A DNA stretch of 33,150 nt from contig NZ_LMIK01000001.1 in assembly GCF_001428685.1 (NCBI RefSeq), positions 770,256-803,405 on the forward strand, written 5' to 3'. The position numbers and the translations under genes were made by a program. Below are positions 358 through 27,696 of the stretch, piece after piece (within the stretch, counting starts at the first letter, position 1; each line of letters begins with the position of its first letter). The notes under the pieces were generated by a model. That model made no database searches and had not been told where the DNA came from. It saw only the letters and a program-made list of their open reading frames with translations. Source of the stretch: Lysobacter sp. Root76. GTDB taxonomy: Bacteria > Pseudomonadota > Gammaproteobacteria > Xanthomonadales > Xanthomonadaceae.

Positions 358-717
358 ATGGACAACGTCATGGGTTTCGCCTTTCCCTTCTCCCTCTCCG
401 ACGGCGGCGTCCAGCGCGCCAGCGGCCAGGACAAGATCCGCCAGAACATCCGCGCGCTGCTGGCCACGCGTTTCGGCGAGCGCGTGATGCTGCGCGAGTA
501 CGGCACCCGCATCCACTCGCTGGTGCACGACCCCAACGACGAGGCGATGGCCACCCTGGTCAAGCGCCAGCTGCAGGAATGCATGCTGGCCTGGGAGCCG
601 CGCGTGCTGGTCACCAACGTCACCTTCGAACGCCGCGAGGCCGAGCTGTACGTGCGCCTCGACTACACCCACACCAGCGAACCCAGCACGGATTCGCTGC
701 TGGTCCCGTTGGCCTGA
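358..717 (+). CDS. GPW/gp25 family baseplate wedge protein
   Basis: The 119-residue product has the length and pattern of the gp25/GpW lysozyme-like baseplate family: an N-terminal FPFSLSDGG segment, QDKIRQNIRALLATRFGERVMLREYG in two blocks, then an EPRVLVTNVTF strand region. In T4 and in extracellular contractile injection systems, gp25 proteins join the wedge to the inner baseplate and help start sheath polymerisation. The segment FGERVMLREYGTRI is the family's most conserved part. A GAGGAG ribosome site lies upstream of the ATG. It sits between a small tail protein and a baseplate-J-like protein, the usual order in these operons. Confidence 0.9.
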   Translation: MDNVMGFAFPFSLSDGGVQRASGQDKIRQNIRALLATRFGERVMLREYGTRIHSLVHDPNDEAMATLVKRQLQECMLAWEPRVLVTNVTFERREAELYVRLDYTHTSEPSTDSLLVPLA

Positions 718-732
718 GCAAGGAGCGCCGTC

Positions 733-2337
733 ATGGCCGTCACCGATCCGTTGCCGCCGGCGATCGATTACACCAACAAGGACTACGCGTCCTTGCGTCG
801 CGCCATGCTCGATCTGGCGCGCCTGCGCCTGCCGGAATGGACCGACCACACTCCGTCCGACCTGGGCGTGGTGCTGACCGACATGGTCGCCTACACCGGC
901 GACGTGATCCTGTACTACCAGGATCGCATCGCCAGCGAGTTGTTTCCGGGCACCGCGCGCGAACGCCGCAGCGTGCTGCAGCTGCTACGCCTGATCGGCT
1001 ACGAACCCACGCCGCCGCTGCCGGCGCGCGCGGACCTGCTGCTGACCTTCTCGGTTCCGGTCGGCCCGGCGGTGATCGTGATCCCCAGCGGCGCGCAGTT
1101 CATCGCCAGCCAGCCCAGCGACGACCCGCCGACCTTCGAATACCTCGGCCCGGCGCTGTCGATCGATCTGCATTCGGATCAGGTCCTGCCTGGCGCGGTC
1201 GCCGGCCAGGCCCAGTTCGTGCTGCCGGTGTCGCACAGCCGCAGCCTGCCGCCGACCCTGCTCGGTTCTTCCAGCGGCGAACCCAACCAGAGCTTCCGCC
1301 TGCCGCACAAGCCGCCGATCCTGGAAAGCCTGGTGGTGGAGGTCGACGAAGGCGCCGGCTGGGTGCGCTGGGACCGGCGCGACAACTTCCTCTACAGCAC
1401 CGGCCCCGACGGCCGCACCCTGCTGTCCACCCGCGACTCGCGCGACTACATCTGCCAGTTCGACGAGAACGACGCGTGCAGCATCCTGTTCGGCGACAAC
1501 GTGTTCGGGCGCATTCCGCCGCGCGGAACCAACAACGTGCGCGCGACCTGCCGGGTCGGCGGCGGCACCCGCGCCAACGTCTCGGCCAACACCATCACCC
1601 GCGCGGTGACCGTGCTGCCGAACCTGCTGGCGGTGACCAACCCGGCCCCGGCCGCGGGCGGCAGCGCTTCGGAGAGCAGCGAGATCGCGGTCCGCAACGG
1701 ACCCATGGTCTACCGCAGCGGCCGTCGCGCGGTCACGCCCGACGACTGCGTCGCCCTGGCCTATCACGCCGGCGGCGTGGCCAAGGCGCGCGCGCGCAGC
1801 CGCAACTGGAACCAGATCGACCTGATCGTCGCCCCGCAAGGAGACAGCTGGCGTCCGGTGCCCGAAGCCCTGCGCACCGCGCTGCTGGCCTATTTCGAGG
1901 ACAAGCGCATGGCCGGCACGCAGTTGCGCGTGCTCGACGCCAGCCCCGCACCGGTCGCGATCGCGATGACGGTGCGCTACGACGCGCGCTACCAGGCCGA
2001 TCCGCTGCGTCAACAGATCGCCGATGCGGTCGCGCGCTACCTCGCCTACGACGCGGTCGATTTCGGTCAGGCGCTGTACCCAAGCGACCTGTTCGCGCTG
2101 ATCGAAGCCATCCCGGGCGTGCTGTCGCTGGACATCTACCGTTTCAACCGCGCCGACCAGCCCGCCTCGACACTGGACGACGACCTGCGCCGCTACGACC
2201 TGCCGTCGATGGCCGATCTGCCGGACTTCATCCGCAACGCCCTGTTGTCGCGCACCGCCGTCGCCAGCCGCGTCGATGTCGGTCCCTACGAGCTGCCGGT
2301 GCTGTCGCAGCTCGAACTCAGCCTGCAGATCGGTTGA
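733..2337 (+). CDS. Putative baseplate assembly protein, gpJ/gp6-like
   Basis: The 534-residue product begins with the IDYTNKDYASLRRAMLDLA block, then WTDHTPSDLGVVLTDMVAYTGDVILYYQDR, which is the conserved N-terminus of the baseplate-J-like assembly proteins. The central part contains the expected FGDNVFGRIPPRG beta segment. The C-terminal part (YPSDLFALIEAIPGVLSLDIYRF) resembles the gpJ tail domain that packs around the spike. It is predicted to build the wedge ring with the gp25 protein upstream. An AAGGAG site lies 7-8 bp before the ATG. The length is normal for the family, and the next gene starts 10 bp after the stop. Confidence 0.9.
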   Translation: MAVTDPLPPAIDYTNKDYASLRRAMLDLARLRLPEWTDHTPSDLGVVLTDMVAYTGDVILYYQDRIASELFPGTARERRSVLQLLRLIGYEPTPPLPARADLLLTFSVPVGPAVIVIPSGAQFIASQPSDDPPTFEYLGPALSIDLHSDQVLPGAVAGQAQFVLPVSHSRSLPPTLLGSSSGEPNQSFRLPHKPPILESLVVEVDEGAGWVRWDRRDNFLYSTGPDGRTLLSTRDSRDYICQFDENDACSILFGDNVFGRIPPRGTNNVRATCRVGGGTRANVSANTITRAVTVLPNLLAVTNPAPAAGGSASESSEIAVRNGPMVYRSGRRAVTPDDCVALAYHAGGVAKARARSRNWNQIDLIVAPQGDSWRPVPEALRTALLAYFEDKRMAGTQLRVLDASPAPVAIAMTVRYDARYQADPLRQQIADAVARYLAYDAVDFGQALYPSDLFALIEAIPGVLSLDIYRFNRADQPASTLDDDLRRYDLPSMADLPDFIRNALLSRTAVASRVDVGPYELPVLSQLELSLQIG

Positions 2338-2347
2338 GGGGGCCCGA

Positions 2348-5300
2348 GTGATCATCGACCGCTTCATCGCAGACGCCGACCTGGTCGCCCGCCGCGTGCG
2401 GGTGGCCTGGACGCTGACGCCGGGTCCGGGCGAGACCCTGGCCGACGCGCCGCGCCAGACGCTGCGGCGCAAGACCCGCGACTTCGAATTCCCGCAGCCG
2501 CCGCTCGCGCCCGACCCTTACCTGGTCTACGACAGCGCCGCGTTCCCGCCGATTCCCGGCGGCGGCATCAGCGTGATCGACCTGCCGCCGTGGGAAGAGC
2601 GCGACGGCGCCGAGCGCATCGTCCATGAAGCGATCTGCGTGGCCCAGGATGTCGGCGGCCAGCCGCTGGAACGCATGCGCCGCATCGTCGCCACGACCTA
2701 CGGCGCCGACGGCCAGCCGCTGCGGCGGCGGATCGAGATCGTCGACGGCGGCGACGCGCCCTTGTCGCTGACGCCGGGCGACGCCTGCTACTACCAATTG
2801 TTCAGCGCGGCCTTCGATCCGGTCGAAGCGCAACGCTATCGCGCGATCGCCACGCCGGCGGCGCCGCACGGCCTCAACCGCAGCATGTACGACTTGCTGC
2901 CGGCGGTGCATCGCCAGTTCGACGTCAACCTGCGCCCGGTCACGCAGGGCTCGGAGGCGATTCCGGAAATGGCCGCGCGTTCGGGCCAGCTGCGGCGCCT
3001 GCTCGACGTCTACGGCGCGGCCATGGACGGCGCGCGCAGTTCCGCCGAGAACCTGTGGACCCTGCACGACGTCGACCGCGTCGACGGCCGCCGCCTGCCG
3101 CTGCTGGCCGGCTGGCTGGGCTGGCGCCTGGGCGACGCCGATGCCCTGCCGCTGGCGCGCAACGAACTCAAGGCCACCCCGCGCCTGTACGAATCGGTGG
3201 GCACGGTGACCGCAGTCGGCGCGCTGGTCACGCGCTACACCGGCTGGACCACGCGCACCGCCGAATTCGTCCAGCACCTGGCGCGCAGCAACCATGCGCC
3301 GCGCTATCAACTGCACGCCAGCGTGCCGGCCGGCGCGGGCTGGCGCTCGCCGCTGGACGCTGCCGCGCTGCTCGGCTTCGGCAGCGGCAACGACGAAGCC
3401 TTCGGCGTCGGTCCGGCGCCGGCGACCCTGGTCGGCAACATCGCCGGGCCGTACGCGATCTTCGCCGGCGCCGAGCTCAGCATCGCCGTCGACGGCGGCG
3501 CCGCATTCCGCGTGCGCCTGGGCTCGTCGTCGTTCGCCAATCCGGCGGCGGCCACCGCGGCCGAAGTCGCGGCCGCGATCGCGGCGGTCGCCAACGACAT
3601 CGTCGCCGACGCGGTCGGTGGCCAGGTGCGGCTGCGCACGCGCAGCGTCGGTCCGGAATCGCAGATCAGCGTGGCCGCGCGCGAAAGCGAACCGCTGACC
3701 CTGGACGCGGCCGGCAGCGATCGCCTCACCGCCGCGGCCGATGCGCTCGGCCGCGTGCGCGTATTCGCCAGCGATGCCTTCTCCACACCCGATCCCGACC
3801 AGCGCGAAGGCGAACGCGCGCCCTACGGCGGCCTGGTCTGCAAGACCTGGGATTCCGGCCAATGGCGTGGGGCGACCCGCCTGCTGGCGACCCGGCCGGC
3901 CGACGATGCCGCAGTCGCGCATCCGGCCGCGGCCACGCTCGCCGACGGTCGCGTGTTCCTGGCCCGCATCGAAGCCGCCGAGAGCCCGAACGCGCGCGTG
4001 CGCTGGAGCCTGGGCAGTTCGCGTCCGCGTCTGCCGGCCGTGCTGCAGGGCCGGCAGTTGCCGCGCTTCCGTCTGCTCGTCGGCACCCGGCTCACACTGC
4101 GCACCGCCGGCGGCAACGACGTGTTCCAGGTCAACGCCGTCGACTACGTCAACCCGGCGCAGGCCACGACCGCCGAAGTCGTGACTGCGATGAACGCGCA
4201 ATTCACTCAGGCCGTCGCCAGCCCCGCCGGCGACGGATCGATCCGCCTGACCAGCACTGCGCTCGGCCCGACCGCGCGCCTGTCGGTGGATCTGGCGCTG
4301 TCGAGCACCGCGCGCGCGCTCGGCTTCGTCCATGCCACCGCACCGAGCTTCGGCAGTTGGGACGACACCCTGGACCTCACCGCGGCGCAAACCATTCCCG
4401 CGCTCACGCCAGGCCGCCCGACCGAACTGAGCGCGCTCGCCTCCGGCAACGGCGCGCTGCTCGCGTGGAGCGAGCACGAGAACGGCCGCTGGCGCCTGCG
4501 CGCCAGCGCCTGGCTGGGCGCGGTGGACGCGATCGCGACCGCCGCCGGTCTGGCGCTGCGCGGCGAGAACGGTGCGATCAGCGTGCTCGATTCCGGCGAC
4601 GGCCTGCCCAGCGACGACGTCCGCCATGCGCACGTCGACGCGCTGGGCGCGCTCTGGGTCGCCACCGATGCCGGCGTCGCACGCCGCCGCGGCGATCTGA
4701 CCTGGCAGAGTTTCGACATCGGCGACGGCCTGTCCAGCGACGACTGCCGCCAGCTGCTGCAATACACCGACGCCGGCGTCTGGGTCGCCACCGCGGCCGG
4801 CCTGTCGCGGATCGCGGCCAATGGCAGCATCACCGTGCTCGACAGCGGCGACGGTCTCGCAGACGACGACGTGCGCGCGCTGGCCCTGGCCGCCGACGGC
4901 TCGCTGTGGATCGCGACCGCGGGCGGGCTCAGCCGTCTCGACCGCGATGGCAGCTTCGCTAATACGCTCGCGCCGACCCTGCCCAGCGACGACGTGCGCG
5001 ATGTCGCGCTGGCCGCCGATGGCCGCATCTGGGCCGCCACCGCCGCCGGCATCGCCGAACGCAGCGCGGGCGGCACCTGGTCGACCGTGACCTCGCCGTT
5101 GCCGATCGGCAACGATGTGCGCGGCCTCGCCTACGCCGACAACGCACTGTGGATCGCCGCCGCCAGCGGCGTCTGGCGTCGCGCCGGCGACGGCAGCTGG
5201 CGCGGTTGGACCCTGGCCGACGGCCTGCCCAGCGTCGACGCGCGCCGTATCGGCGTCGATGGCGCCGGCAATGCCTGGGTCGCCACCGCCGCCGGCGCCG

Positions 5301-6433
5301 CACGCATCGACCGCAACGACGCGGTCATCGCGGTTCGCGCTGCGCAAGGCCTGCCCAGCGACGATGTCAGCGCCTGGTCGTCGCCGTGGTCGGGCGCGAT
5401 CGCGATCAGCGACGGCGGCGTCGCCAGCGGCGATCGCGGCGACCGCGATCCCTGCCTGCTGCGCGAAGCCGGCGGCAGCATCCTGCTGCTGTGGTCGCGC
5501 TGGCTGGCCGGCGCGGCCGGCGAAGACCGGCGTGCCCTGCGCGCGCGGCGCTACGATCCGGTCGCATTGAGCTGGGGCGCGACGGTGAACGTCACCACCG
5601 CGCCCGCACAGGGTGCGGCCGATGTGCAGCCGTCCGCACTGGCCTTGGGCGGCGGCGGCGCCCGCGTGTTCTTCAGCAGCGACCGCAACGGCGGCCGCGG
5701 TTTATGGGAAGTGTCCTTGAACGCGGCCCTGGTCGCGGCGGCGCCGATCGGACTGCCCTGGAACGAAACCGCGCGCATCGCTCCGCTGCCGCTGATCCTG
5801 CCCGTCGCCGGGCTCACCCTGCTGCATCGTTGCGATGCCTCGCTCGCGCTCGACCAGCTCGCGCCGATCCTCGCCGGCGCAGCCGCGACCGCCGCGCCCA
5901 CGCGCGTACCCGAGGCCGCGACCCTGCGCCGGCACTGCAACACGATCACGCCGCGCATGGCCGAAACCGCGCGCAACAGCCGCCATCACCAATGGGGCGA
6001 TCTGCTCGCCTACACCCCGCACCGGCCGCTGGGCGGCGACGACGAACCGCCGCTGTCGCCGAACGAGTTCTTCACCCGCGGCACGCTCGGCCTCTACGTC
6101 ACCCGCGGCCGTTTCGGCCAGGCCCTGACCGCGACCAACGCCGCGCGCCTGAAGCAACTGCTGGCCGAGTTCCTGCCGATCAACATGCGCGCGGTGATCG
6201 TGCTGTCGCCGTCGCTGACCACCGAAGTGCTGTACGCCCCGGGCGCGGATCTCGGCGATTCCTATCTGGACGACTACCCCTTCGTCGAAAACTTCCTCGA
6301 CCTGGCCGATTCCAGCGCTGCCGCCTTGCCGGACTGGGTGGTGCTGATCAGCAACCAGGTCGCCGGCGTCAGCGCCGATCCGACCAACTTGAACACGCTG
6401 CGCCGACGCACGTACTTCCCGCCGCCGATCTGA
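2348..6433 (+). CDS. Tail-protein-I-like baseplate protein fused to regulator-type beta-propeller repeats
   Basis: A GTG start at 2348, 10 bp after the previous stop, gives 1361 residues; an open frame continues upstream but only as antecedent-gene shadow. Residues about 175-330 (MYDLLPAVHRQFD ... LLAGWLGWRLGD ... ATPRLYESVGTVTAV) match the tail protein I/Afp12-type baseplate domain. Two related blocks of about 100 residues follow (each with an AATAAEV- or ATTAEVV-type core). From about residue 735 to 1010 there are six to seven repeats of the form GDGLPSDDVR-x(10-15)-LWVATxxGxxR, the signature of two-component-regulator propeller (Reg_prop) blades. The C-terminal region has another conserved block (MAETARNSRHHQWGD ... 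LKQLLAEFLPINMRAVIVL). The protein likely completes the wedge, with the propeller exposed for binding. The fusion is unusual. Confidence 0.85.
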   Translation: MIIDRFIADADLVARRVRVAWTLTPGPGETLADAPRQTLRRKTRDFEFPQPPLAPDPYLVYDSAAFPPIPGGGISVIDLPPWEERDGAERIVHEAICVAQDVGGQPLERMRRIVATTYGADGQPLRRRIEIVDGGDAPLSLTPGDACYYQLFSAAFDPVEAQRYRAIATPAAPHGLNRSMYDLLPAVHRQFDVNLRPVTQGSEAIPEMAARSGQLRRLLDVYGAAMDGARSSAENLWTLHDVDRVDGRRLPLLAGWLGWRLGDADALPLARNELKATPRLYESVGTVTAVGALVTRYTGWTTRTAEFVQHLARSNHAPRYQLHASVPAGAGWRSPLDAAALLGFGSGNDEAFGVGPAPATLVGNIAGPYAIFAGAELSIAVDGGAAFRVRLGSSSFANPAAATAAEVAAAIAAVANDIVADAVGGQVRLRTRSVGPESQISVAARESEPLTLDAAGSDRLTAAADALGRVRVFASDAFSTPDPDQREGERAPYGGLVCKTWDSGQWRGATRLLATRPADDAAVAHPAAATLADGRVFLARIEAAESPNARVRWSLGSSRPRLPAVLQGRQLPRFRLLVGTRLTLRTAGGNDVFQVNAVDYVNPAQATTAEVVTAMNAQFTQAVASPAGDGSIRLTSTALGPTARLSVDLALSSTARALGFVHATAPSFGSWDDTLDLTAAQTIPALTPGRPTELSALASGNGALLAWSEHENGRWRLRASAWLGAVDAIATAAGLALRGENGAISVLDSGDGLPSDDVRHAHVDALGALWVATDAGVARRRGDLTWQSFDIGDGLSSDDCRQLLQYTDAGVWVATAAGLSRIAANGSITVLDSGDGLADDDVRALALAADGSLWIATAGGLSRLDRDGSFANTLAPTLPSDDVRDVALAADGRIWAATAAGIAERSAGGTWSTVTSPLPIGNDVRGLAYADNALWIAAASGVWRRAGDGSWRGWTLADGLPSVDARRIGVDGAGNAWVATAAGAARIDRNDAVIAVRAAQGLPSDDVSAWSSPWSGAIAISDGGVASGDRGDRDPCLLREAGGSILLLWSRWLAGAAGEDRRALRARRYDPVALSWGATVNVTTAPAQGAADVQPSALALGGGGARVFFSSDRNGGRGLWEVSLNAALVAAAPIGLPWNETARIAPLPLILPVAGLTLLHRCDASLALDQLAPILAGAAATAAPTRVPEAATLRRHCNTITPRMAETARNSRHHQWGDLLAYTPHRPLGGDDEPPLSPNEFFTRGTLGLYVTRGRFGQALTATNAARLKQLLAEFLPINMRAVIVLSPSLTTEVLYAPGADLGDSYLDDYPFVENFLDLADSSAAALPDWVVLISNQVAGVSADPTNLNTLRRRTYFPPPI

Positions 6434-6488: not shown

Positions 6489-7028
6489 ATGGACACGGAC
6501 ACCCGGATGCCCCTGCCGCAAGGCATGTACCGCGACGTGCTGCGCGACGCCGACGGGCGCGTGATCTGGGACCGCGGCTGGGCCAAGAACGCGATCCTCA
6601 CCGACTGCCGACGATTGCTCGCCGCCTTCATGGGCGGCACGCCGGGCGGAACGCTCGGCATCCAGGGGCTGGCGGTCGGCGCCGGCCTCGCGGCTTGGGA
6701 TCAGGTGCCGCCGCCACCTCCGACCGGCAACGAAACCGGACTCACCGATCCGTCGCCGTTCGTGGTACCTGCCGCGGCGCTGGCCTTTAGCTTCATGAAC
6801 GGTCCGGTGCCCTCGGTCACGCCGACCAATCGCCTGCAAATCGTCGCCACGCTCGGGCCCAACGTACCGCCCTGGCCCAACGGCAGCCACGCCACCGGCA
6901 ACCTGCGCGAGTTCGGCCTGATCGGCCAACTCGGCGGCGCGCCGATGCAGATCAATCTCGTGCGCCATCCGGTGGTCGCCAAAGACCCGGCCAGCACGCT
7001 CGAACGCACCATCTGGCTCGTGTTCTGA
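6489..7028 (+). CDS. Tail-fibre/baseplate-associated protein
   Basis: The product has 179 residues. The N-terminus contains VIWDRGWAKNAILTDCRRLLAAFM, and the C-terminus has the pattern LREFGLIG, then QINLVRHPVVAKDPASTLERTIWLVF in blocks. This arrangement, 'no-longer-defined target then FREFGLF ... NRVVHPVIxK ... LxRTIxxxF', is typical of small phage tail proteins that sit near the fibre. The part between is proline-rich. There is no signal peptide. An AAGGA site lies 8 bp before the ATG and the gap after the previous gene is 55 bp, the largest in the operon. A structural role in the particle is inferred from similarity and neighbours; the exact position in the baseplate is not known. Confidence 0.7.
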   Translation: MDTDTRMPLPQGMYRDVLRDADGRVIWDRGWAKNAILTDCRRLLAAFMGGTPGGTLGIQGLAVGAGLAAWDQVPPPPPTGNETGLTDPSPFVVPAAALAFSFMNGPVPSVTPTNRLQIVATLGPNVPPWPNGSHATGNLREFGLIGQLGGAPMQINLVRHPVVAKDPASTLERTIWLVF

Positions 7029-7053: not shown

Positions 7054-8781
7054 ATGGCCATCATCTCACCCAACACTTTCGATCCGATCCGCCGTTACGT
7101 CAGCGTGCGTCTGGCCCAGGGCGTGCCCCTGGCCGATGCCGACTGGAACGAAGGCGACGACATGCGCCGCTACGAGCTGCGCGCCTTCCTGCGCTGGTTC
7201 GTCGGCGACGGCGTGCCGGTCGGCAACGACGGTTTCCGCATCGCCGCGATCAATTCCGCGACCAGCTTCACCATCGTCGCCGGCGGCGGTCCGCAGCCCC
7301 TGCAGGCCGGCCGCATGCTGGTCGACGGACTGGAAGCCTTCATCACCGCCGACATCGGCTTCAGCGCACAGGCCTTGCACGCCGGCCAGGCCGGCGCCGC
7401 CGCGCTGGCCGCGAGCTGGGGCGTGCCGGTGATCGCCGCCTTGCCGGCGCCGCCGGTCGCGCCGGCCACGCGCACGCTCACCGTCTACCTCGACGTCTGG
7501 GAGCGCCTGGTCACGCTGGCCGAAGATCCGGCGCTGGTACTGCCGGGCCTGGGCACCGAAACCTGCTCGCGCCTGCGCCGCGAATGGGCGGTGCGCGTGC
7601 GCACCGGCGCTGCGCCGCCGGTCAACGGCGATCCCGATTTCATCGCCGGCCACAGCTACGCCGCGCTGGCGACGATCACCCAGACCTCGGCCGGCATCAT
7701 CGATGCGCCGGCCGTGGTCGACCGTCGCCGCCGCGGCATCTCGCTGCCCTCGCAGATGGATTTCAACCAGGTACTGGCGGACACCTTCGGCGGCGGCTAC
7801 GCGGTCAACGGCAGCGGCGTGCCGCAGCTGCCCTATCCGATGCGCGATGTCATCAACGCGATGCTGCGCGAACGCCCGGCCGCAGTCGGCCCGACCACGG
7901 TGCTCAACGCCGGGCCCTACAACACGCCCGCCGCGGTGATCGACTCCAGCGGTGTGCCCTGGGTGTTCTGGGTACGCGTGTCCGGACCGAATCGCTTCCT
8001 GTCCTTCAGCCGCCGCATCGCCGGCGTGTGGACCGCGCCCGCCGACGCCTTCCAGTTCACCGGCGTGCTCAGCGTCAGCAGCATCGCCGCCGCGGCCCAG
8101 CCCAATGGTTCGATCCGGGTGTTCTACTCGGCGTTGTCGGGCACCAACCGCATCTTCAGCCGCCTGTTCACCGGTGCCTGGGGCGTGGAGGAAGCCGTCG
8201 ACGCGGTCGATCAGAACACCCGCGTCAGCGCGGTCACCGACCCCGCCGGCACCATCATTGCCACTTGGATGCGCGACACCGCAGGCGTGTTCACTGCACA
8301 GACGGTGCGGTATCCGCTGGTCGGCGCGCCCGGTGCGGTCACCGCCGCCGGCGTCATGGTGCGCCCCGGCGACCATGCGATCACGATCGATCCCACCGGC
8401 GCGCCGCAACTGGTCTATGCGCAGGATCCGAACCCGGGGCCGAACTGGAGCGTGTTCACCAAGCGTTTCATCGCCAATGCCTGGGAAGCCAACTTCACCG
8501 ACACGACCCTGACCATTCCGGTCACCACGTTCATCGACCTGGCGGCGGGCTACACCGCCGACGGTTCGCTGTGGGTGTTCTATTCCACGGTCAGCGCACC
8601 GGGCTTCAGCACCCTGCGCGCGCGCCGGCTGGTGCTCGGGGTGACCGAAACCCGCGAACTGCTGCCGCCGCAACAGACCGCGCGCTTCCCCACTCTCGCG
8701 GTCGACGCCGCCGGCAACGCCGGCCTCTACATCCAGAACGGCGCCCTGTTGCAGCAGGTCAGCCTGGTCCAGCACATCTGA
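7054..8781 (+). CDS. DUF6519-type protein with beta-propeller-like C-terminal half
   Basis: The product has 575 residues. The N-terminus (NTFDPIRRYVSVRLAQG, then LADADWNEGDDMRRYELRA) and the segment TLTVYLDVWERLVTLAEDP are the hallmarks of DUF6519, a family seen in phage-tail-like and injection-system operons. From about residue 285 on there are repeated units with a strand such as GVPWVFWVRV, GSIRVFYSAL, GTIIATWMRD, APQLVYAQD and GSLWVFYSTV, spaced about 50 residues apart. This is the pattern of a sialidase-like or other beta-propeller. A role in target recognition or particle decoration is inferred. No signal peptide is seen. The upstream ribosome site is GGGGA. Confidence 0.75.
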   Translation: MAIISPNTFDPIRRYVSVRLAQGVPLADADWNEGDDMRRYELRAFLRWFVGDGVPVGNDGFRIAAINSATSFTIVAGGGPQPLQAGRMLVDGLEAFITADIGFSAQALHAGQAGAAALAASWGVPVIAALPAPPVAPATRTLTVYLDVWERLVTLAEDPALVLPGLGTETCSRLRREWAVRVRTGAAPPVNGDPDFIAGHSYAALATITQTSAGIIDAPAVVDRRRRGISLPSQMDFNQVLADTFGGGYAVNGSGVPQLPYPMRDVINAMLRERPAAVGPTTVLNAGPYNTPAAVIDSSGVPWVFWVRVSGPNRFLSFSRRIAGVWTAPADAFQFTGVLSVSSIAAAAQPNGSIRVFYSALSGTNRIFSRLFTGAWGVEEAVDAVDQNTRVSAVTDPAGTIIATWMRDTAGVFTAQTVRYPLVGAPGAVTAAGVMVRPGDHAITIDPTGAPQLVYAQDPNPGPNWSVFTKRFIANAWEANFTDTTLTIPVTTFIDLAAGYTADGSLWVFYSTVSAPGFSTLRARRLVLGVTETRELLPPQQTARFPTLAVDAAGNAGLYIQNGALLQQVSLVQHI

Positions 8782-8797: not shown

Positions 8798-11311
8798 ATG
8801 AAACGCGAACACTCGCTACTGCGGGCCTGGGCGATGACACTCGCCCTGCTCGTCGGCGCCGACGCCGTCGCGGCGACGGCGACGCCGAACGTCACCGCCG
8901 CCAGCACTTCCGAACCCAAACTCAACGGCGCCGGCGACGCCTGGGCGCCCTTCAGCAACGCACTGGGTTTCCCCAACTCGAGCAAGTCGATCAAGGTCTT
9001 CTATCTGTCCGACGATCTGGCCGTATATCCGCTCAACGGCGCGGGCGCGACCGTGCAACTGCGGCCCAAGACCAGCGGCACGCCCATCAACTGCACCTTC
9101 AACGCCGGCGTGCCGGTGCTCAGCGGCACCAACGGCGGCAGCTGCACCTTCCGCATGACCAACACCGCCGGCCAGATCGACACCCTGGAGGTGTTCCATC
9201 TCGGCCTGCTCTCAGGCGACATCACCCTTACCGCCACCGGCATCACCGCCAGCGGCGGCAATACCGTCGATGACTACAACAGCGACAACGTGATCCCGGG
9301 TTCGAAGCCGACGCCGGCCGCGGGCCCGCCGCTGTCGCGCCTGCCGGCACGCCTGGTGCTGGTGTTCGACAAGTCCGGCAGCATGGCCTGGTCGTCCAAG
9401 CTCAATGGCGATCCGGTCTGCGGTGCGCTGTACTCGCCCAATCCCGACTGCCAGCGCTGGAAGGTGCTGCGGCGCGCGACCGGGCAGATGATCTCGGTCG
9501 CCAAGGCCTATCAGTTGCCCAGCGATCAATTGGGCGTGGTGTTCTTCGATAACGACGCCACCAATACCGGCGGCCTCGCCGCGATGACCACTCCCACGCT
9601 GGACGCGGTGCTGACCGAGATCGACAAGCCGGCTCATCAGCCCGGTGGCGGCACGTCGATCGGCGACGGCATCGAGAACCTGCAAGGCGCGGTCACCGGC
9701 GGCGACAACGCCAACTTCAACAACACCATGCTGCTGTTCACCGACGGCGCCCAGAACACCAGTAAGTTCCTGGTCTGGGACGGCGCCGACCTGCGCCTCA
9801 ATGCCGCCAACAGCCCGATCGGCGGCACCCTGGTGCGTCCGGCCGGCAAGCAACTGAGTCTGTGCCCGTTCCGCTTGCGCCTGGACGATCCCAGCGATCC
9901 GGACTCCAGCTCGCTGCTGCAGAACATCGCCAACTACAGCGGCTGCGGCGCGCTCAACATCGAGACCACGCTGGACAATCCGCCCGCCGGCGCGATCCAG
10001 TATTTCCTGCAGGTGCTGGCCGACACCCTGATCGGCGACAAGCTGGAGCTGATCCAGGCCGCCAAGGGCGAGCAAGCCGCGGGGGCCGGCACCGGTGCGC
10101 CGCCCGCGCCGCTGGACATGAGCTTCAAGACCAGCAAGAAGGACCTCGCCTTCACCATCCTGCTGGGCTGGGACCAGGCCTTCCAGGCCGACGGCCGCCC
10201 CAACATCAAGCTGAGCAAGGACGGCGTCGACTTCGATCCGCTGCACAACCCGCGCTTCACCGTCAGCGGCGGCCAGGACCACCTCGCCCTGACCCTGCGC
10301 GCGCCGTTCTGCGGCGTCAACGGCAAGTGCGTGTCCAGCGACGGCGACTGGAAGATGCAGGTCGCCCGCACCCTGCCGCGCGGCCTGGGCCACTGGAACC
10401 TGTTCGTGATAGGCGACAACGCCAGCATCGTCTCGCGCTACAGCGTGAGCCAGACCAAGTCCGGCATCGGCGAACCGCTGCAACTCAAGGCCACGCTGAC
10501 CGAAGGCGGCAAGCCGCTGGCGGGATTGCCCGCCGGCACGGTGCGCGCCTTCATCTCCGGCCCCGAGCTGAGCCTGGGCAATATCCTCTCGGACGGTAAG
10601 GGCAAGGCGGGCGATGCGCCGCAGGGCGACCCGCTCAGCGCCGCAGGCTTGAAGGTGCAGGCGATGCTGGCCGACCCGGCGCAACGCGACCAGATCCTCA
10701 AGGCCCTGGAACTCGGTGCCGAGAAGGGCATCGAACTCAAGGAAACCAGCCCGGGCGTCTACACCGGCGAATACCCGGCGACGCTGGCCGAAGGCGTGTA
10801 CCAGGTCAGCTACCGGATCGACAGCACCAGTTCGGACAACGGCGCCTTCACCCGCGTCTACACCACCGACCACTACGTGCAAGTGGCGCCGGATGCCGAG
10901 GCCACCGCCAAGACCATCAAGCACGAGCCCGCGCGCCCCTGCCCCTCGACCTTCGCAGGCGGCTGCGTGCAGCTGAGCCTGACCCCGGTCGACGCCAAGG
11001 GCAATCGCGTAGGACCCGGCAAGTCGGCGAGCTTCCAGTTGGTGCAGCCCTTCGAGGGCGGCATCGTCGGCGACGTCACCGACAACCTCGACGGCAGCTA
11101 TACCCTGGTGATCGGTTACAACAAGAAGGGCATGGCCCCGCCGGTGCTGCGCATCGATGGCCAGACCCTGACCCTGCCCGACGCGGTCGGCACCGGCGGC
11201 AAGAGCGACGGCAAGCTCACCGGCGACAAGCCGATCTGGCAACAGTGGTGGGTCTGGCTGATCGCGCTGCTGGTGCTGCTGATCCTGATCCTGCTGATGC
11301 GGCGCAAGTAA
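8798..11311 (+). CDS. Secreted von Willebrand factor A domain protein with C-terminal membrane anchor
   Basis: The product has 837 residues. Residues 1-26 form a signal peptide (basic MKREHSLLR, hydrophobic core, VAA cleavage area). A vWA domain starts near residue 185 with LVLVFDKSGSM; its metal site is visible as D191-x-S193-x-S195, T286 (GGGTSIGDG) and D316 (LLFTDGAQN). Ig-like beta domains follow. At the end a Trp-rich stretch and a hydrophobic segment (WWVWLIALLVLLILILLM) finish with RRK, a stop-transfer anchor. The start is preceded by AAAGGAG. It is the last gene of the tail-like operon, 16 bp after the DUF6519 gene, and is followed by a terminator. It may bind a ligand at the envelope, or tether or release the particle; this is inference. 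Confidence 0.85.
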   Translation: MKREHSLLRAWAMTLALLVGADAVAATATPNVTAASTSEPKLNGAGDAWAPFSNALGFPNSSKSIKVFYLSDDLAVYPLNGAGATVQLRPKTSGTPINCTFNAGVPVLSGTNGGSCTFRMTNTAGQIDTLEVFHLGLLSGDITLTATGITASGGNTVDDYNSDNVIPGSKPTPAAGPPLSRLPARLVLVFDKSGSMAWSSKLNGDPVCGALYSPNPDCQRWKVLRRATGQMISVAKAYQLPSDQLGVVFFDNDATNTGGLAAMTTPTLDAVLTEIDKPAHQPGGGTSIGDGIENLQGAVTGGDNANFNNTMLLFTDGAQNTSKFLVWDGADLRLNAANSPIGGTLVRPAGKQLSLCPFRLRLDDPSDPDSSSLLQNIANYSGCGALNIETTLDNPPAGAIQYFLQVLADTLIGDKLELIQAAKGEQAAGAGTGAPPAPLDMSFKTSKKDLAFTILLGWDQAFQADGRPNIKLSKDGVDFDPLHNPRFTVSGGQDHLALTLRAPFCGVNGKCVSSDGDWKMQVARTLPRGLGHWNLFVIGDNASIVSRYSVSQTKSGIGEPLQLKATLTEGGKPLAGLPAGTVRAFISGPELSLGNILSDGKGKAGDAPQGDPLSAAGLKVQAMLADPAQRDQILKALELGAEKGIELKETSPGVYTGEYPATLAEGVYQVSYRIDSTSSDNGAFTRVYTTDHYVQVAPDAEATAKTIKHEPARPCPSTFAGGCVQLSLTPVDAKGNRVGPGKSASFQLVQPFEGGIVGDVTDNLDGSYTLVIGYNKKGMAPPVLRIDGQTLTLPDAVGTGGKSDGKLTGDKPIWQQWWVWLIALLVLLILILLMRRK

Positions 11312-16039: not shown

Positions 16040-17242
16040 TTATTTCTTGCAGATCGCCGCCGGATCGGCCTTGGCCGCGTCTGCGCCCCACAGGCAGACG
16101 ATCCGATCCAGCGCCAGACCCGTGCGGGAGTTGCTGAAGAACACGATGCCGTCCCCGGATTGCGGACGCATCAGGAACTTGGCGCGGAACCCGGCCTGAT
16201 TGCGGCCGTCATGGCCCACGGCGGTGCTGCCGTCGGCCAGGCGCTCGATGAAATGGCCCATACCGTAGACAGCGTCCTCGGGTGCGCGCGGCGTGCTCAG
16301 CTCCGTCGGCGTGTACATCAGAGTCAGTTGCGCCTGCGTCAGCGGATGCGCGCCGGGGCTGCTCGCCATGCCGGCTATCATCCAGCGAGCGAAGTCGTTG
16401 ACGGTGGTGGTCAGGGTCGAAGGCGCCTGCTCGACGTAGTAGCGCATCGGCACCGGCCCGCCGTCGTCGCCATGGCCCTGCGCAGCGCCGGCCAGCACCT
16501 TCGGCGTCATGGCGACGCTGGTGTGTTTCATGCCCAAGGGTTTGAACACCAACTCACGCGCCAAGTCAGAGTACTTGCGCTTCGTGGTCCGCTCGATCGC
16601 CAACTGCATCAGCGTGTAGCCGCCGCCGGAATACTGGAACTTGGCCCCGACCGGCGCGAACAGCTCGACCGCGCCGCGCCCGTTGGTCTTGCCGGCCAGC
16701 GATTCCTCCAGGGTCGGCAGCTCCTTGAAATCGAGCCAGCCCTGGTATCCGCCCAAGGTCGTGCCCGCGGTGTGCGAGAGCAAACGTCGGATCGTGATCT
16801 GGCGATAATCGAACTGGTTCTGCGCCAGCGGCCACGGCGACACCATGTCGGCCACCGGCTGGTCCAGTTGGATACGCCCCTGCTCGGCCAGGCGCATCGT
16901 CACCCAGCTCGCGATCGGCTTGGACAGCGAGGCCGCGACGAACACCGTGTCGGGCGTCACCGGCACCTTGCCGGCGTGGTCGGCATAGCCGAAGCCACGG
17001 GCGTAGACCAATTTGCCGTCGACGATCAGTCCCACGGCCGCGCCCTGAACCTTGGCCTCTTTCATGATGGCCGGTACTTCGCGCTCGATGACCTTAGCGA
17101 ACGGAGGCGCAGGCGCGGGAGTGGCCGCCGAAGCCTGTGCACCGACCGTAATCGCGCCCATCAGCGCCAGCACTGCGAGCGGCTTGATCGATGCGGCGCT
17201 GGCCGCGCCGTTGAGAATGTATCCGGAGTGTCCGTTGCGCAT
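16040..17242 (-). CDS. Serine hydrolase of the beta-lactamase (class C/PBP) family
   Basis: From the ATG at 17242 the product has 400 residues; an upstream extension of 45 codons lacks signal. A hydrophobic segment and Ala-rich cleavage area lie at residues 19-42, so it is exported. The active-site motifs are S105-L-S-K108 (SxxK), Y204-S-G206 (the YxN position, here with Gly) and H344-D-G346 replacing KTG. This pattern marks esterase/DD-peptidase relatives of EstB and class C enzymes rather than a typical lactamase. The LSHTAG block at about residues 155-160 agrees. Substrate is unknown. It is transcribed away from arsR, with 387 bp between them. Confidence 0.9.
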   Translation of the reverse strand: MRNGHSGYILNGAASAASIKPLAVLALMGAITVGAQASAATPAPAPPFAKVIEREVPAIMKEAKVQGAAVGLIVDGKLVYARGFGYADHAGKVPVTPDTVFVAASLSKPIASWVTMRLAEQGRIQLDQPVADMVSPWPLAQNQFDYRQITIRRLLSHTAGTTLGGYQGWLDFKELPTLEESLAGKTNGRGAVELFAPVGAKFQYSGGGYTLMQLAIERTTKRKYSDLARELVFKPLGMKHTSVAMTPKVLAGAAQGHGDDGGPVPMRYYVEQAPSTLTTTVNDFARWMIAGMASSPGAHPLTQAQLTLMYTPTELSTPRAPEDAVYGMGHFIERLADGSTAVGHDGRNQAGFRAKFLMRPQSGDGIVFFSNSRTGLALDRIVCLWGADAAKADPAAICKK

Positions 17243-17629
17243 GGCGTCCTGGCTTGGCTGAAAAGTTTTGGATACGGCGCAACGCTCCGCGAGAGCGATG
17301 CCTGCGCGGACACGAAACGACGCGATTGAGTAAGGCGGTCCCGCGGCCAACCCCCTGGCGCCGCGCCTGCACCGCATGTGCGATGCAAAGATCAGACCCA
17401 GCTAGGATGCGCGGCCGGTGGGTTTGGTTTAGGCGGTCGCAGCGTCGGTATTCCGCCGGACCCTGGGTCCGATTGCGCTGCGATCCCGATGCCCGAGAAC
17501 CGGGCGGTCTCAATCGCGGGCGACGGCTAGGCGGCGTGCCGAGCCAAATGGCGCGTGAAGCAAACAACTCCGGAGCAGCGGTCCGTCGCAACGCTTGACA
17601 AGGTCCAATAATTCCAAAATACTGGAATT
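17243..17629. other. Divergent intergenic region between the serine hydrolase and arsR
   Basis: I see no gene in these 387 bases. The right end carries the arsR promoter and operator-like palindrome. The rest should contain the hydrolase promoter, but no convincing -35/-10 pair could be picked by eye. Confidence 0.6.
17595..17623 (+). promoter_or_regulatory. arsR promoter
   Basis: A perfect TTGACA (-35) at 17595-17600 is separated by 17 bp from AATACT (-10 like, 4 of 6 consensus bases) at 17618-17623. Transcription would start near 17630, which is the A of the arsR ATG, so the message may be leaderless; no Shine-Dalgarno is visible ahead of the ATG. Confidence 0.65.
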
Positions 17630-24002: not shown

Positions 24003-27000
24003 TTAGTAATAACCCGCCAGATTCAAGAACCAGCCCTTGTTGTCGTACTTCAGATCGGTCAGGTCGTCGCTGAAGTCGGTGAAGTTGTAGCCCACGCCGA
24101 CCTTGAAGTTGTCGCCGATCTGGCGGTCCAGGCCGATCAGCCAGCCGCGCTTGTCGCCGCCGTCCTTGACCTGCAGCCAGCGGTACTCGGCCAGGCCTTC
24201 CCATTTGGCGATCAGGTGATAGCGCAACTGGCCGGCGACGAAGTCGGCGCGGCTGTCCAGCCACTGACCTTCGCCGCGGCCGATGCGGTAGTCGCCCCAG
24301 CGGCTGGCGAGCTTGCCGGCCACTTCCCACTTGTCGTCGAGGCGGTAGACGCCTTCGAACGACAGCACCTGCGAGCGCTGGTCGTAGGTGGCGCCGCCGT
24401 CCTGGCCGAGGGTGGCCAGGTCGTACAGGTAGGTGTACTTGCCGAACAGGCCCCAGCGGGTGTTGTCGTGCGGGCGGTAAGCGAAGCCGAGGTTGGCTTC
24501 GGCCAGCTTGGCGCTTTCGGCCGGGTTGAGCTCGTCCTGGGTATCGGCGTAGTTGGCGCGCAGGGCCAGGCGCAGGTCTTCGTTGACCTTGTAGAACAGG
24601 CGGTTGGTGGTGACCCACTGCTCGCGCTGTTCGGCGCCGGTGTCCTTGCGGTACTCCAGCTTGCTGTTCCACTGGGCGACTTCGTCGGTGCGGCCGCCGC
24701 TGACGCTGTAGGCGCGGCGGTCGACCCGGCCGGTGCTGGCGTCGAGTTCGCCGTCCATCAGCGTGAAGCCGATGTTCCAGCCTTCGGCCGGATAGAAGTC
24801 CATGCCGTAGGTGTGGACGATGCCCTGACTGTTGTCGCTCGGGTCCTTGAGGAACTGGCTTTCGTTGAACAGGTTGACCTGGTTGGTCAGGCGCCAGCGC
24901 TGGCCGAGGGTCCAGCCGTTCTGCAGATCGCGGTTGAACAGCGGGTCGGTGGCGGTGGTGTCGGTGCTGTAGCTGTAGGCGCCGTAGATCGTGTGATCGG
25001 GCTTGAGGCGGTATTCGGCCTCGACCTTGCCGCCGTGGCCGCGGCTGCCGCTGCTGACTTCCGCGCCGACGCTGGAACGGTCGCCGAACAGGTACTTGGC
25101 GCCGAGGGTGACCAGGTTGTTGCGGTCGTAGGCGCCGCCGTCGTCGTCGGCGGTGAACTGGCCGACGCCGTACAGCTCCAGCGAAGTGCCGAAGCGGCGG
25201 CGGTAGCTCACAGCCGCCAACAAGGCATCGGCGCTGCCGCTGAGGCGCTCTTCGCGCACGCGGCGCAGTTCAGCGCCGAGCTGGGCGTCGTTGGTGATGC
25301 GCCAGTCGGCGGTCAGCTGGCTCTGCTCCAAGGCCTCGGCGCCACGCTCGGCGCGCGAGTACTTGCCGTACAGGCTGAAGTTTTCGGTGAAGTAGCCGAG
25401 GAACTCGGCGCCGTACTCTTCGATGTCCAGGCCGGTGTCGGCGCGCGCGACCGAGAAGCCGGCATCGACATCGCGCCACCAGGCGCCGACGCTCCAGTCG
25501 CGCTCGGTCCAGCCCAGTTCCTTGAAGTTGGCGCGGGCTTCGACCGCGCGCGCATCGCCGCTGCGCGCGGCGGTGGCCGGGTTGCGCTGGACGAAGCTGA
25601 GGCCGCCGTTGTCCGAATAGAAGATCGGGGCGACGGTGGACTCGCTGCGGGTCTGTTCGAGCTTGAGGTAGGTGCCGCGACCGGCCTGCAGGGTCAGGTC
25701 GACGCCCTTGAGGCTGTAGTCGTCGCCGCGGCGGTTCTCGTCGATATAGGTACCGCCGACCGCGACGTGCTCACCGAACCACTGCTTGCCGCGGAAGCCG
25801 GCGCTGACGTCGTCGGCGTCGAAGCCGACCGGCACGTATTCGTAGTCGACCAGCAGCAGCTGGGTGTAGCCGTCGAGCGGCTGGTCGCGGGTCAAGGTGC
25901 GCACGTTCTCGCGCGTGACCTGGGCCAGCGGACGGGTCAGGATCAGGCGGCCCTGGAGTTCGTCGATCTCGTAGTCGGCACCGCGCTGCAGGTCCACGCG
26001 GCTCTCGGTGCGGCCGGTGGTGCGGTCGCGGATTTCCAGGGTGACCTTGTCCGAGCCCGGCAGCACATCGGTGTGCTTGAGGTAGTACAGGCTGCCGCCG
26101 GTGCCGAGGAACTCGGTGTGGCCGTAGGCGCTCTGCGCTTCGGAGCCGAACGCGCGCACCTCGCTCTTCGGATCGCCGAGCTGGGTGGTGGCGCGCGAAC
26201 GCCAGGACAGCGCCGCGCCGTACAGCGAGCGGTCGTACTGGCCGTACTCGGTGCCGGTGATGCCGGTGTTGAAGTTGCCCCACAGCGCCTGGTTCTGGTC
26301 CCAGTCCACGCGCACGTACAAGCGGCCCTGGGTATCGACGTCGCGGTAGGTGCTGGAGTCGTCGCCGTAGACCGGGTAGTACAGATCCGGGTCGAGGCGG
26401 CGGAACACGTCCTGGGCGTCCGCGTCGAAGAAGCCGTTGAACAGCTGCTTGATCTCGCGCTCGCGGGTGTCGGCCTGGGCGGTGATCAGGTACTTGCCCT
26501 TGACCTTGCCCTTCAAATAGAACGCCAGCCGGCCCTCGCTGATGAAGTCCTTGTCGTAGCGCTCGTCGCCGGCCAGCGGTTCGATGTTGCCGCTGACGTT
26601 GTTCTGCGACACGGTGACGTCGGCCAGGGCGACCAGGAAGGCGTACTTGCCGGTGACGTCGACGTCGAGGCGGTGCTGCAGCGGCGCGCCGCCGCGGGGC
26701 TCGATCGCCACGTCGTAGCCGTGGCGGCCGATCGGCTCCAGGAACTCGGCCACGAACTTGCGTTCGAGGTCGATCGGGAAGGTTTCGCCGTTGATGGTCA
26801 GCTGGGTGTCGCGCGGGATGTCGCGGCCGTAGATGCGCACCCGCGAGCCGTAGATCGGGATGTTCTGGATGCGCAGCGAGCTGCGGCCGTAGATCGCGTT
26901 CTCGATGCCCTGCGATTCGGCTTCGTCGCCGTCCAGCACTTTGCCGAGCGTGCGCTGGTTCTCGTCGCGCAGCACCTGGATGCCGCGTTCGTAGTCTTCC

Positions 27001-27686: not shown

Positions 27687-27696
27687 GGCCATGTCC

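What the first reader, a model, noticed from the sequence alone, without database searches (positions are those of the whole stretch)
2348..6433. Baseplate tail-I protein fused to a regulator-type beta-propeller
Seen: a tail-protein-I-like N-terminal domain and six to seven GDGLPSDDVR...LWVATxxG repeats in one 1361-residue frame, within a gp25/baseplate-J operon. Known: such Reg_prop blades are characteristic of hybrid two-component sensors, where they sense periplasmic ligands. Inference: here they may form a surface recognition or trigger module on the baseplate.
Basis: partly seen in the sequence, partly recalled or inferred. Interest (0 to 1): 0.7.

Follow-up and report, generated by a model that had tools for sequence, protein, structure and literature searches.

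The report
Nested propellers on injection-particle baseplate protein
A soil bacterium's phage-tail-like injection particle has a baseplate part into which a seven-bladed propeller of the kind used by bacterial sensors has been inserted, probably to grip a target surface; it is an unusual variant of a known arrangement rather than a new kind of system.

Summary
The 1361-residue frame (2348-6433) carries a divergent tail-I/Cis12 helical core (residues ~166-335) and a Reg_prop propeller (729-1011), which AlphaFold2 builds as six blades plus one closed by both ends (mean pLDDT ~71). It follows baseplate J in a contractile-injection operon. The Reg_prop is an internal insertion: L181, the nearest relative whose tail-I gene could be read, lacks it and carries a sialidase-fold propeller instead. 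In the window protein the Reg_prop apparently interrupts remains of that propeller; only two of its six proposed blades are well supported singly. Family members often carry carbohydrate-binding modules (CBM5/12 in 29, CBM4/9 in 6 of 64), mostly after the core where positions were seen. Reg_prop was found only in the window's lineage (2 of 64; whole protein in 5 of 395 family genomes). It is the fastest-changing region (dN/dS 0.287 against 0.105-0.187). Best reading: a wedge-borne recognition module; function is inferred. A working sensor is less likely: no Y_Y_Y, kinase or cyclase domain is attached. Propellers on tail-I proteins recur (N-terminal NHL in 3 of 7 others scanned): a new variant of a known kind.

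The parts
2348..2842 (+). N-terminal FN3-like region (residues 1-165)
   Evidence: Inferred from alignment with relatives; beta strands 5-79 in the L181 model; weak fn3 hit only in one relative (L162, E 0.008)
2843..3352 (+). tail-I / Cis12 helical core (residues 166-335)
   Evidence: TIGR02242 E 3e-7, below cut-off; hhalign to CIS12-type cores E 1.4e-12; 41% to L181, E 4e-31
3380..3712 (+). insert A (residues 345-455), holds the first copy of a ~90-residue domain of unknown type
   Evidence: Similar to insert B: score 110, best of 1000 shuffles 73; found only in orthologues among fetched loci; no Pfam match for window 3371-3730
3713..4027 (+). outer propeller, proposed blades 1-2 (residues 456-560)
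   Evidence: By order only; not above shuffles against L181 (475/500 and 209/500)
4028..4327 (+). insert B (residues 561-660), holds the second copy of the duplicated domain
   Evidence: no Pfam match for window 4043-4330
4400..4531 (+). outer sialidase-type propeller, proposed blade 3 (residues 685-728)
   Evidence: 2 of 500 shuffles reach the score against the L181 propeller
4532..5380 (+). Reg_prop seven-bladed propeller, six blades plus one split closing blade (residues 729-1011)
   Evidence: Pfam E 3e-12; blade HMM; AlphaFold2 mean pLDDT about 71 here; Foldseek to 4a2m, 4a2l, 3ott, 2z2p
5435..5887 (+). outer propeller, proposed blades 4-6 (residues 1030-1180)
   Evidence: Residues 1092-1346 align with L181 550-794, E 7e-14; blade 5 0/500, blade 4 22/500, blade 6 220/500 shuffles
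5888..6433 (+). C-terminal element (residues 1181-1361 and stop)
   Evidence: Shared with L181 and aligned with L082/L102/L103; strand-helix-strand 687-727 in the L181 model, block pLDDT 53-73; no sequence match to the CIS12 C-terminal element
733..2337 (+). baseplate J / Cis11-like protein
   Evidence: TIGR02243 E 5e-66, above its cut-off; Pfam Baseplate_J E 6e-9
358..717 (+). gp25-like protein
   Evidence: Position and resemblance to annotated gp25 genes of relatives; no profile was run on it
6489..7028 (+). 179-aa protein, separate here but fused to the tail-I C-terminus in L181
   Evidence: 33% to L181 tail-I 824-997, E 4e-22
7054..8781 (+). DUF6519 protein, next operon gene
   Evidence: PF20129 E 2e-10; 32% to the L181 neighbour, E 8e-40
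8798..11311 (+). VWA protein with signal-peptide-like start (by eye) and C-terminal membrane segment
   Evidence: Pfam VWA_2 E 8e-7; hydrophobic segment at ~816-834

Best explanation
The protein is the tail-I (Cis12/gpI) wedge subunit of a contractile injection particle. Between its helical core and its C-terminal element its nearest readable relatives carry a sialidase-type propeller, six-bladed by my count. In this Lysobacter lineage a complete seven-bladed Reg_prop propeller and two copies of a ~90-residue domain were added in and around that outer propeller. Because the two ends of a closed propeller lie side by side, it can be dropped into a loop without disturbing the host domain. I propose that the extra domains stand out at the rim of the baseplate, once per wedge, and bind a glycan or protein on the target surface, as an extra or alternative receptor-binding module that helps the particle to dock and perhaps to fire. 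Shown: domain order, predicted propeller fold, insertion relative to L181, operon context, rate of change. Inferred: exposure, copy number, ligand, docking. Speculative: triggering.
For: Propeller fold. Relative without the insert: P0001 156-335 and 1092-1346 match L181 152-325 and 550-794, leaving 756 residues against 224 between them. L181 model: helical core, propeller whose best fold matches are glycoside hydrolases, sialidases and the CV39L lectin, then strand-helix-strand. Family members carry carbohydrate-binding modules: CBM_5_12 in 29, CBM_4_9 in 6 of 64; of the 8 members whose positions I saw at E 0.001 or better, the best stretch lies after the tail-I core in 7 and before it in 1, L155. 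Profile A7 finds S. coelicolor Cis12 (9gtp_E, E 8.5e-6) and, weakly, R2-pyocin Tri2 (E 0.014). Reg_prop has the highest dN/dS of nine regions, 0.287 against 0.105-0.187, and more variable sites, 81/283 against 167/1078, Fisher p 1e-6. Precedents: a CBM-bearing baseplate wedge protein of phage Vp4 binds bacterial cells (PMC11406892, passages); [quoted passage not shown]
Against: No ligand, particle or binding data exist. The AlphaFold2 model of P0001 is poor outside the Reg_prop (mean pLDDT 36 overall), so the outer propeller in P0001 rests on sequence: blades 3 and 5 are supported singly, blade 4 marginally, blades 1, 2 and 6 not. Contigs with a closer baseplate J (50-56%: L080/L098, L099, L081/L100) end at or inside tail-I, so the insertion could be older than it looks. 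dN/dS stays well below 1: no proof of diversifying selection, and relaxed constraint would look the same; the most variable 283-residue stretch (806-1088) runs on into the outer propeller. The five orthologues are close and their pairs not independent. No AAA+ assembly ATPase was seen near the operon, so even the particle type is not certain.
Confidence: 0.5

Rival explanations
1. Anchor to the producer's own membrane or envelope. The tail-I extension tethers the particle inside the cell, as the Cis12 extension does in thylakoid-anchored CIS, and the co-encoded VWA membrane protein may be its partner.
For: In Anabaena an extra domain of Cis12 forms the wide connector to the thylakoid membrane (PMC8894136, passages). 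S. [quoted passage not shown] Here the last operon gene is a VWA protein with a C-terminal membrane segment, and genes of like start and length follow in L007 and L008.
Against: The VWA domain would face the periplasm (inferred from its ends), out of reach of a cytoplasmic baseplate. P0001 has no clear membrane segment.
Confidence: 0.15
2. Structural padding or lateral contact. The inserts fill space or link neighbouring wedges or particles into arrays and bind no target.
For: PMC8894135 (passages) holds that gp7-like wedge parts mediate superstructures. The duplicated inserts match no Pfam family.
Against: Family members carry carbohydrate-binding modules; the Reg_prop changes faster than any other region measured, unlike a packing surface.
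Confidence: 0.2
3. A true sensor. The Reg_prop keeps its sensing job: ligand binding changes its shape and releases contraction.
For: Top Foldseek matches are the sensor domains BT4663, BT4673 and BT3049.
Against: No Y_Y_Y domain or other signal-passing part is attached. In the sensors two propellers and Y_Y_Y act together (recalled); here one Reg_prop propeller stands alone.
Confidence: 0.1
4. Enzyme. The outer sialidase-type propeller or the Reg_prop cleaves surface polymers.
For: Fold matches include sialidases and GH93 enzymes for the L181 propeller and virginiamycin B lyase for the Reg_prop.
Against: P0001 has no Asp-box by my pattern, nor has L181; L082, L102 and L103 have one each. The outer blades are degenerate. 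Catalytic residues were not mapped.
Confidence: 0.05

Closest known systems
CIS12-type tail proteins with an N-terminal NHL propeller (weak to fair matches to NF053768, all under its cut-off: L041, L072 Nostoc plasmid, L073 Roseomonas plasmid)
   Same: Tail-I core and a beta-propeller in one chain; directly after baseplate-J-type genes in L072 and L073 (surroundings of L041 not looked at)
   Different: Propeller is N-terminal and of NHL type; the window's is inserted after the core and of Reg_prop type
Tail-I proteins of Streptomyces phages (LuckySocke, BRock group) and of related viral contigs
   Same: FN3-like region (by eye), tail-I core, C-terminal extension, carbohydrate-binding modules in many; LuckySocke baseplate J 31% identical
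   Different: CBM5/12 or CBM4/9 where modules were recognised; no Reg_prop
L181, L082, L102, L103 tail-I proteins (metagenomic contigs)
   Same: Tail-I core, sialidase/BNR-type propeller, like C-terminal element; DUF6519 gene next in L181
   Different: No Reg_prop; L082, L102 and L103 carry loops that look like CBM5/12 by eye (Pfam only E 0.025, in L082); the next gene of L082 matches TIG, not DUF6519
S. coelicolor Cis12 (9gtp_E, 190 aa) and R2-pyocin Tri2 (6u5b, 177 aa)
   Same: Tail-I core, E 8.5e-6 and 0.014
   Different: Minimal size, no room for a propeller
Reg_prop sensors BT4663, BT4673, BT3049
   Same: Propeller repeat and fold
   Different: Sensor context; no baseplate part
tCIS Cis12 of Anabaena
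   Same: Wedge subunit with a large extra domain (PMC8894136, passages)
   Different: The extension reaches the thylakoid membrane; the word propeller does not occur in that paper's main text

Membership tests
Tail-I / Cis12 (TIGR02242, Tail_P2_I) | Match to the family profile above its cut-off | tested here: not met
   TIGR02242 30.5 bits, cut-off 51.85; no Tail_P2_I match. Claimed as a divergent relative, not as a cut-off member
Tail-I / Cis12 (TIGR02242, Tail_P2_I) | Homologous helical core | tested here: met
   hhalign E 1.4e-12 to six CIS12-type cores; profile A7, which holds window fragments, to 9gtp_E E 8.5e-6
Tail-I / Cis12 (TIGR02242, Tail_P2_I) | Gene directly after baseplate J | tested here: met
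   Window 733-2337 then 2348-6433
Tail-I / Cis12 (TIGR02242, Tail_P2_I) | C-terminal strand-helix-strand element shared with CIS12 | tested here: inconclusive
   Seen in the L181 model; sequence comparison with CIS12 gave probability 0.2 per cent
Reg_prop propeller | Repeats above the Pfam cut-off and a seven-bladed fold | tested here: met
   45.6 bits, cut-off 20.4; predicted model
Reg_prop sensor (two-component or GGDEF) | Y_Y_Y domain and kinase or cyclase output | tested here: not met
   No such Pfam match in P0001 at E up to 1
Extracellular contractile injection system | Sheath, tube, spike, CIS_tube protein and baseplate J in one gene cluster | tested here: met
   the VgrG-type protein matches only below cut-off
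Extracellular contractile injection system | AAA+ ATPase in the cluster (recalled as a core gene) | tested here: not met
   Within C1:730257-803405 only the sigma-54 activator matches PF00004 at E 0.001; one is present in the L101 contig
Extracellular contractile injection system | Particle released and firing on targets | not testable with these tools
   No experiment
Sialidase-type (BNR) propeller | Six blades and Asp-boxes | tested here: inconclusive
   Fold supported for L181, blade number by my count; in P0001 only blades 3 and 5 singly; no Asp-box in P0001 or L181

The most novel reading that the evidence does not exclude
A sensor propeller has been moved into a contractile wedge so that the wedge itself, not a fibre, recognises the target and releases the sheath. 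The outer sialidase-type propeller would be a socket into whose loops lineages drop interchangeable recognition modules (CBM-like loops, Reg_prop).
Probability: 0.15. Interest if true: 0.75.

Novelty: new variant of a known kind. Interest (0 to 1): 0.5.

Why it matters
If right, it shows that the wedge adaptor of injection particles, and not only the tail fibre, is a place where binding domains are swapped, and that a complete propeller can be nested in another one there. Tail-I proteins would then have to be included when receptor-binding parts of these particles are catalogued. The catalogue of which I saw abstract, outline and passages (PMC12923769) describes beta-propeller lectins on fibres and treats Tail_P2_I as an adaptor. 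Removing the 283-residue propeller gives a clean test of what it recognises.

Tried and rejected
Reg_prop as a constant tail-I part: rejected, 2 of 64; the blade HMM found it strongly only in the window and L007 among 74 tail-I frames plus the window (two others at E 0.14 and 0.93). Chance repeats: rejected for the six blades. Phage origin of the whole protein: in 50,697 phage records only a weak hit to residues 751-927 (E 2e-3). The nearest relatives by baseplate J are contigs classed as viral; three (L101-L103) show sheath-, tube- and baseplate-type genes and no capsid gene that I recognised by eye in 18-19 kb. Foreign base composition: GC 0.74 for the Reg_prop, 0.73 for residues 1-335, 0.72 for the end, no sign of recent foreign origin. 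N-terminal query 1-340: own genome only, 1 of 321 class genomes. A3 profile: 5 of 388 phylum genomes matched, only the own one over most of the model; the other four over 75-97 positions. TIGR02242 in 398 phylum genomes: 45 match at E 0.01, 4 above cut-off; of the rest I looked at none. PorZ (NF052228) matched 760-872 at E 0.002, far below its cut-off, and was set aside as a shared propeller repeat.

Papers: no paper held both tail protein I and beta-propeller, Reg_prop and contractile, or two component regulator propeller and phage tail. Contractile injection with Lysobacter gave six papers, seen as a listing only.

Led nowhere: P0001 model outside the Reg_prop; VIA-align not available; the viral fold library gave mainly unnamed proteins and one NHL-repeat protein (Satyrvirus, E 5e-9), no tail-I protein by name; C-terminal element compared by sequence; viral-contig scan with the N-terminal 340 residues.
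Full report
WHAT IS THERE. The window lies at C1:770256-803405 of a 4.36-Mb, 11-contig genome. Named records with 90% identical copies are Lysobacter sp. cf310 and Root916, so the host is a Lysobacter or close kin. The frame 2348-6433 encodes 1361 residues. It follows baseplate J (TIGR02243, E 5e-66). Upstream, in L005, are sheath, gp19-like tube, CIS_tube and spike genes above their cut-offs and a VgrG-related protein below its cut-off. Downstream are a 179-aa gene, a DUF6519 gene and a VWA gene. This is a contractile-injection gene cluster. In C1:730257-803405 the only PF00004 match at E 0.001 is the sigma-54 activator, so no dedicated AAA+ ATPase was seen.

THE TAIL-I PART. Pfam Tail_P2_I is not reached and TIGR02242 matches 207-308 below its cut-off. 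Profile comparison of the core of P0001 and three relatives with six CIS12-type cores gives E 1.4e-12. A profile of A7 (20 rows, window fragments included) finds S. coelicolor Cis12, chain 9gtp_E, at E 8.5e-6 and R2-pyocin Tri2 at 0.014. I treat it as a divergent tail-I protein.

THE REG_PROP PART. The blade HMM and AlphaFold2 agree on one closed seven-bladed propeller, residues 729-1011, the seventh blade made from both ends. Confidence is moderate to good: block means of pLDDT 50-86, mean about 71, about 80 at 810-969. The half-blades do not beat shuffles by score; the model is the evidence for closure. Foldseek puts the BT4663, BT4673 and BT3049 sensor domains first by E-value, with poor overall superposition because most of the model is unfolded, and aligns virginiamycin B lyase 2z2p over 260 columns at 3.1 A, TM 0.70 by target length. 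By sequence, the best matches in the bacterial family outside the lineage are 30-41% identical over parts of 653-1091 (best rows listed); at 17 of the 25 loci read the frame contains a GGDEF motif. The own genome has Reg_prop repeats in three other frames.

THE NESTING. Baseplate J homologues in IMG/VR (in one search the best 80 of 161 were kept) led to 74 tail-I frames; 12 were dropped as identical or as truncated genome loci, leaving 62. With the window and L181 this makes 64. The closest by baseplate J (50-56%) end at or inside tail-I and cannot be judged. Among readable ones L181 matches P0001 at 156-335 (41%, E 4e-31) and at 1092-1346 (27%, E 7e-14) and has only 224 residues where P0001 has 756. 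The AlphaFold2 model of L181 (20 aligned sequences, mean pLDDT 64, pTM 0.46) shows a helical core, a propeller (block pLDDT 56-84) and a strand-helix-strand end (53-73). Foldseek places it among glycoside hydrolases, sialidases and the CV39L lectin; six blades is my count from the sequence. In P0001 the corresponding blades are interrupted: blades 3 and 5 match L181 above shuffles (2/500 and 0/500), blade 4 marginally (22/500), blades 1, 2 and 6 do not (475, 209 and 220 of 500); a blade HMM from L082, L102 and L103 gave five weak hits in the expected order, none above the best shuffle of 6.7 bits (one equals it). Reg_prop falls between proposed blades 3 and 4. Two further inserts, 345-455 and 561-660, hold copies of one domain, seen in no other fetched locus except orthologues.

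HOW USUAL IS IT. Of 64 family members, Reg_prop is in 2 (window and L007; the other orthologues were not put into this set), CBM_5_12 in 29, CBM_4_9 in 6, BNR_2 in 2 at E 0.001. Several members are cut by contig ends, so these are lower bounds. For 8 CBM members I saw positions: after the core in 7, before it in L155. The full protein is in 5 of 395 family genomes; the same five carry the baseplate J at 94% or more, and four others of the 247 searched have distant J matches, 33-44% over part of it. Outside this lineage, propellers occur on tail-I proteins in another place: of seven other tail-I proteins scanned (L041-L044, L072-L074, not a random sample), three have N-terminal NHL repeats and one, on a Kitasatospora plasmid, has crystallin-, I36- and ricin-type domains.

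RATE OF CHANGE. Over five orthologues (ten pairs, not independent), dN/dS is 0.287 for the Reg_prop, 0.187 for outer blades 4-6, 0.121 for the core and 0.105-0.167 for the rest; short linkers were left out. Variable sites: 81 of 283 in the Reg_prop against 167 of 1078 elsewhere (Fisher p 1e-6, sites taken as independent). The most variable 283-residue stretch is 806-1088, partly beyond the Reg_prop. Loops vary slightly more than strands, not significantly (p 0.09). This fits a recognition surface but also relaxed constraint.

MECHANISM. Tail_P2_I proteins are predicted to hold fibres in some eCIS (PMC12923769, passages). A Cis12 extension reaches the membrane in tCIS (PMC8894136, passages). 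A CBM-bearing wedge of phage Vp4 binds cells (PMC11406892, passages). T6SS TssG resembles TIGR02242 (PMC4604203, passages). Together with the carbohydrate-binding modules in relatives, I commit to a wedge-borne recognition module (0.5). Exposure, ligand and any trigger role are inferences.

NOVELTY. New variant of a known kind: extended tail-I proteins and tail-I with a propeller exist in other families; a Reg_prop on a wedge protein was not found in the papers searched, a search limited to open-licence PubMed Central papers.

Noticed in passing
window 8798-11311: Last gene of the cluster encodes an 837-aa VWA protein with a signal-peptide-like start and a C-terminal membrane segment; genes of like start and length follow in L007 and L008. 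Possible anchor or receptor.
   Followed up: partly
window 6489-7028 and L181:3539-6532: The 179-aa protein is a separate gene here but fused to the end of tail-I in L181 (33%, E 4e-22), which suggests that the two work together.
   Followed up: partly
L005 (C1:750257-770256): No AAA+ ATPase match near the cluster except a sigma-54 activator; a relative (L101 contig) has one upstream of its sheath-type gene.
   Followed up: partly
L074:9592-13929: Kitasatospora plasmid tail-I protein of 1445 aa carries crystallin-like, I36-type and ricin-B domains after the tail-I core.
   Followed up: no
L101, L102, L103: Contigs classed as viral in IMG/VR look like contractile injection loci: sheath-, tube- and baseplate-type genes and no capsid gene recognised by eye.
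   Followed up: partly
window 27697-33048 (minus): 1783-aa frame with DUF11, Big_9, cadherin-like and OmpA domains, a large surface protein.
   Followed up: no
window 24003-27692 (minus): 1229-aa frame without any Pfam match at E 0.001, next to the OmpA-type surface protein.
   Followed up: no
window 16040-17377 (minus): Protein of the serine beta-lactamase family (PF00144, E 1e-56); the family also holds esterases and penicillin-binding relatives (recalled).
   Followed up: no
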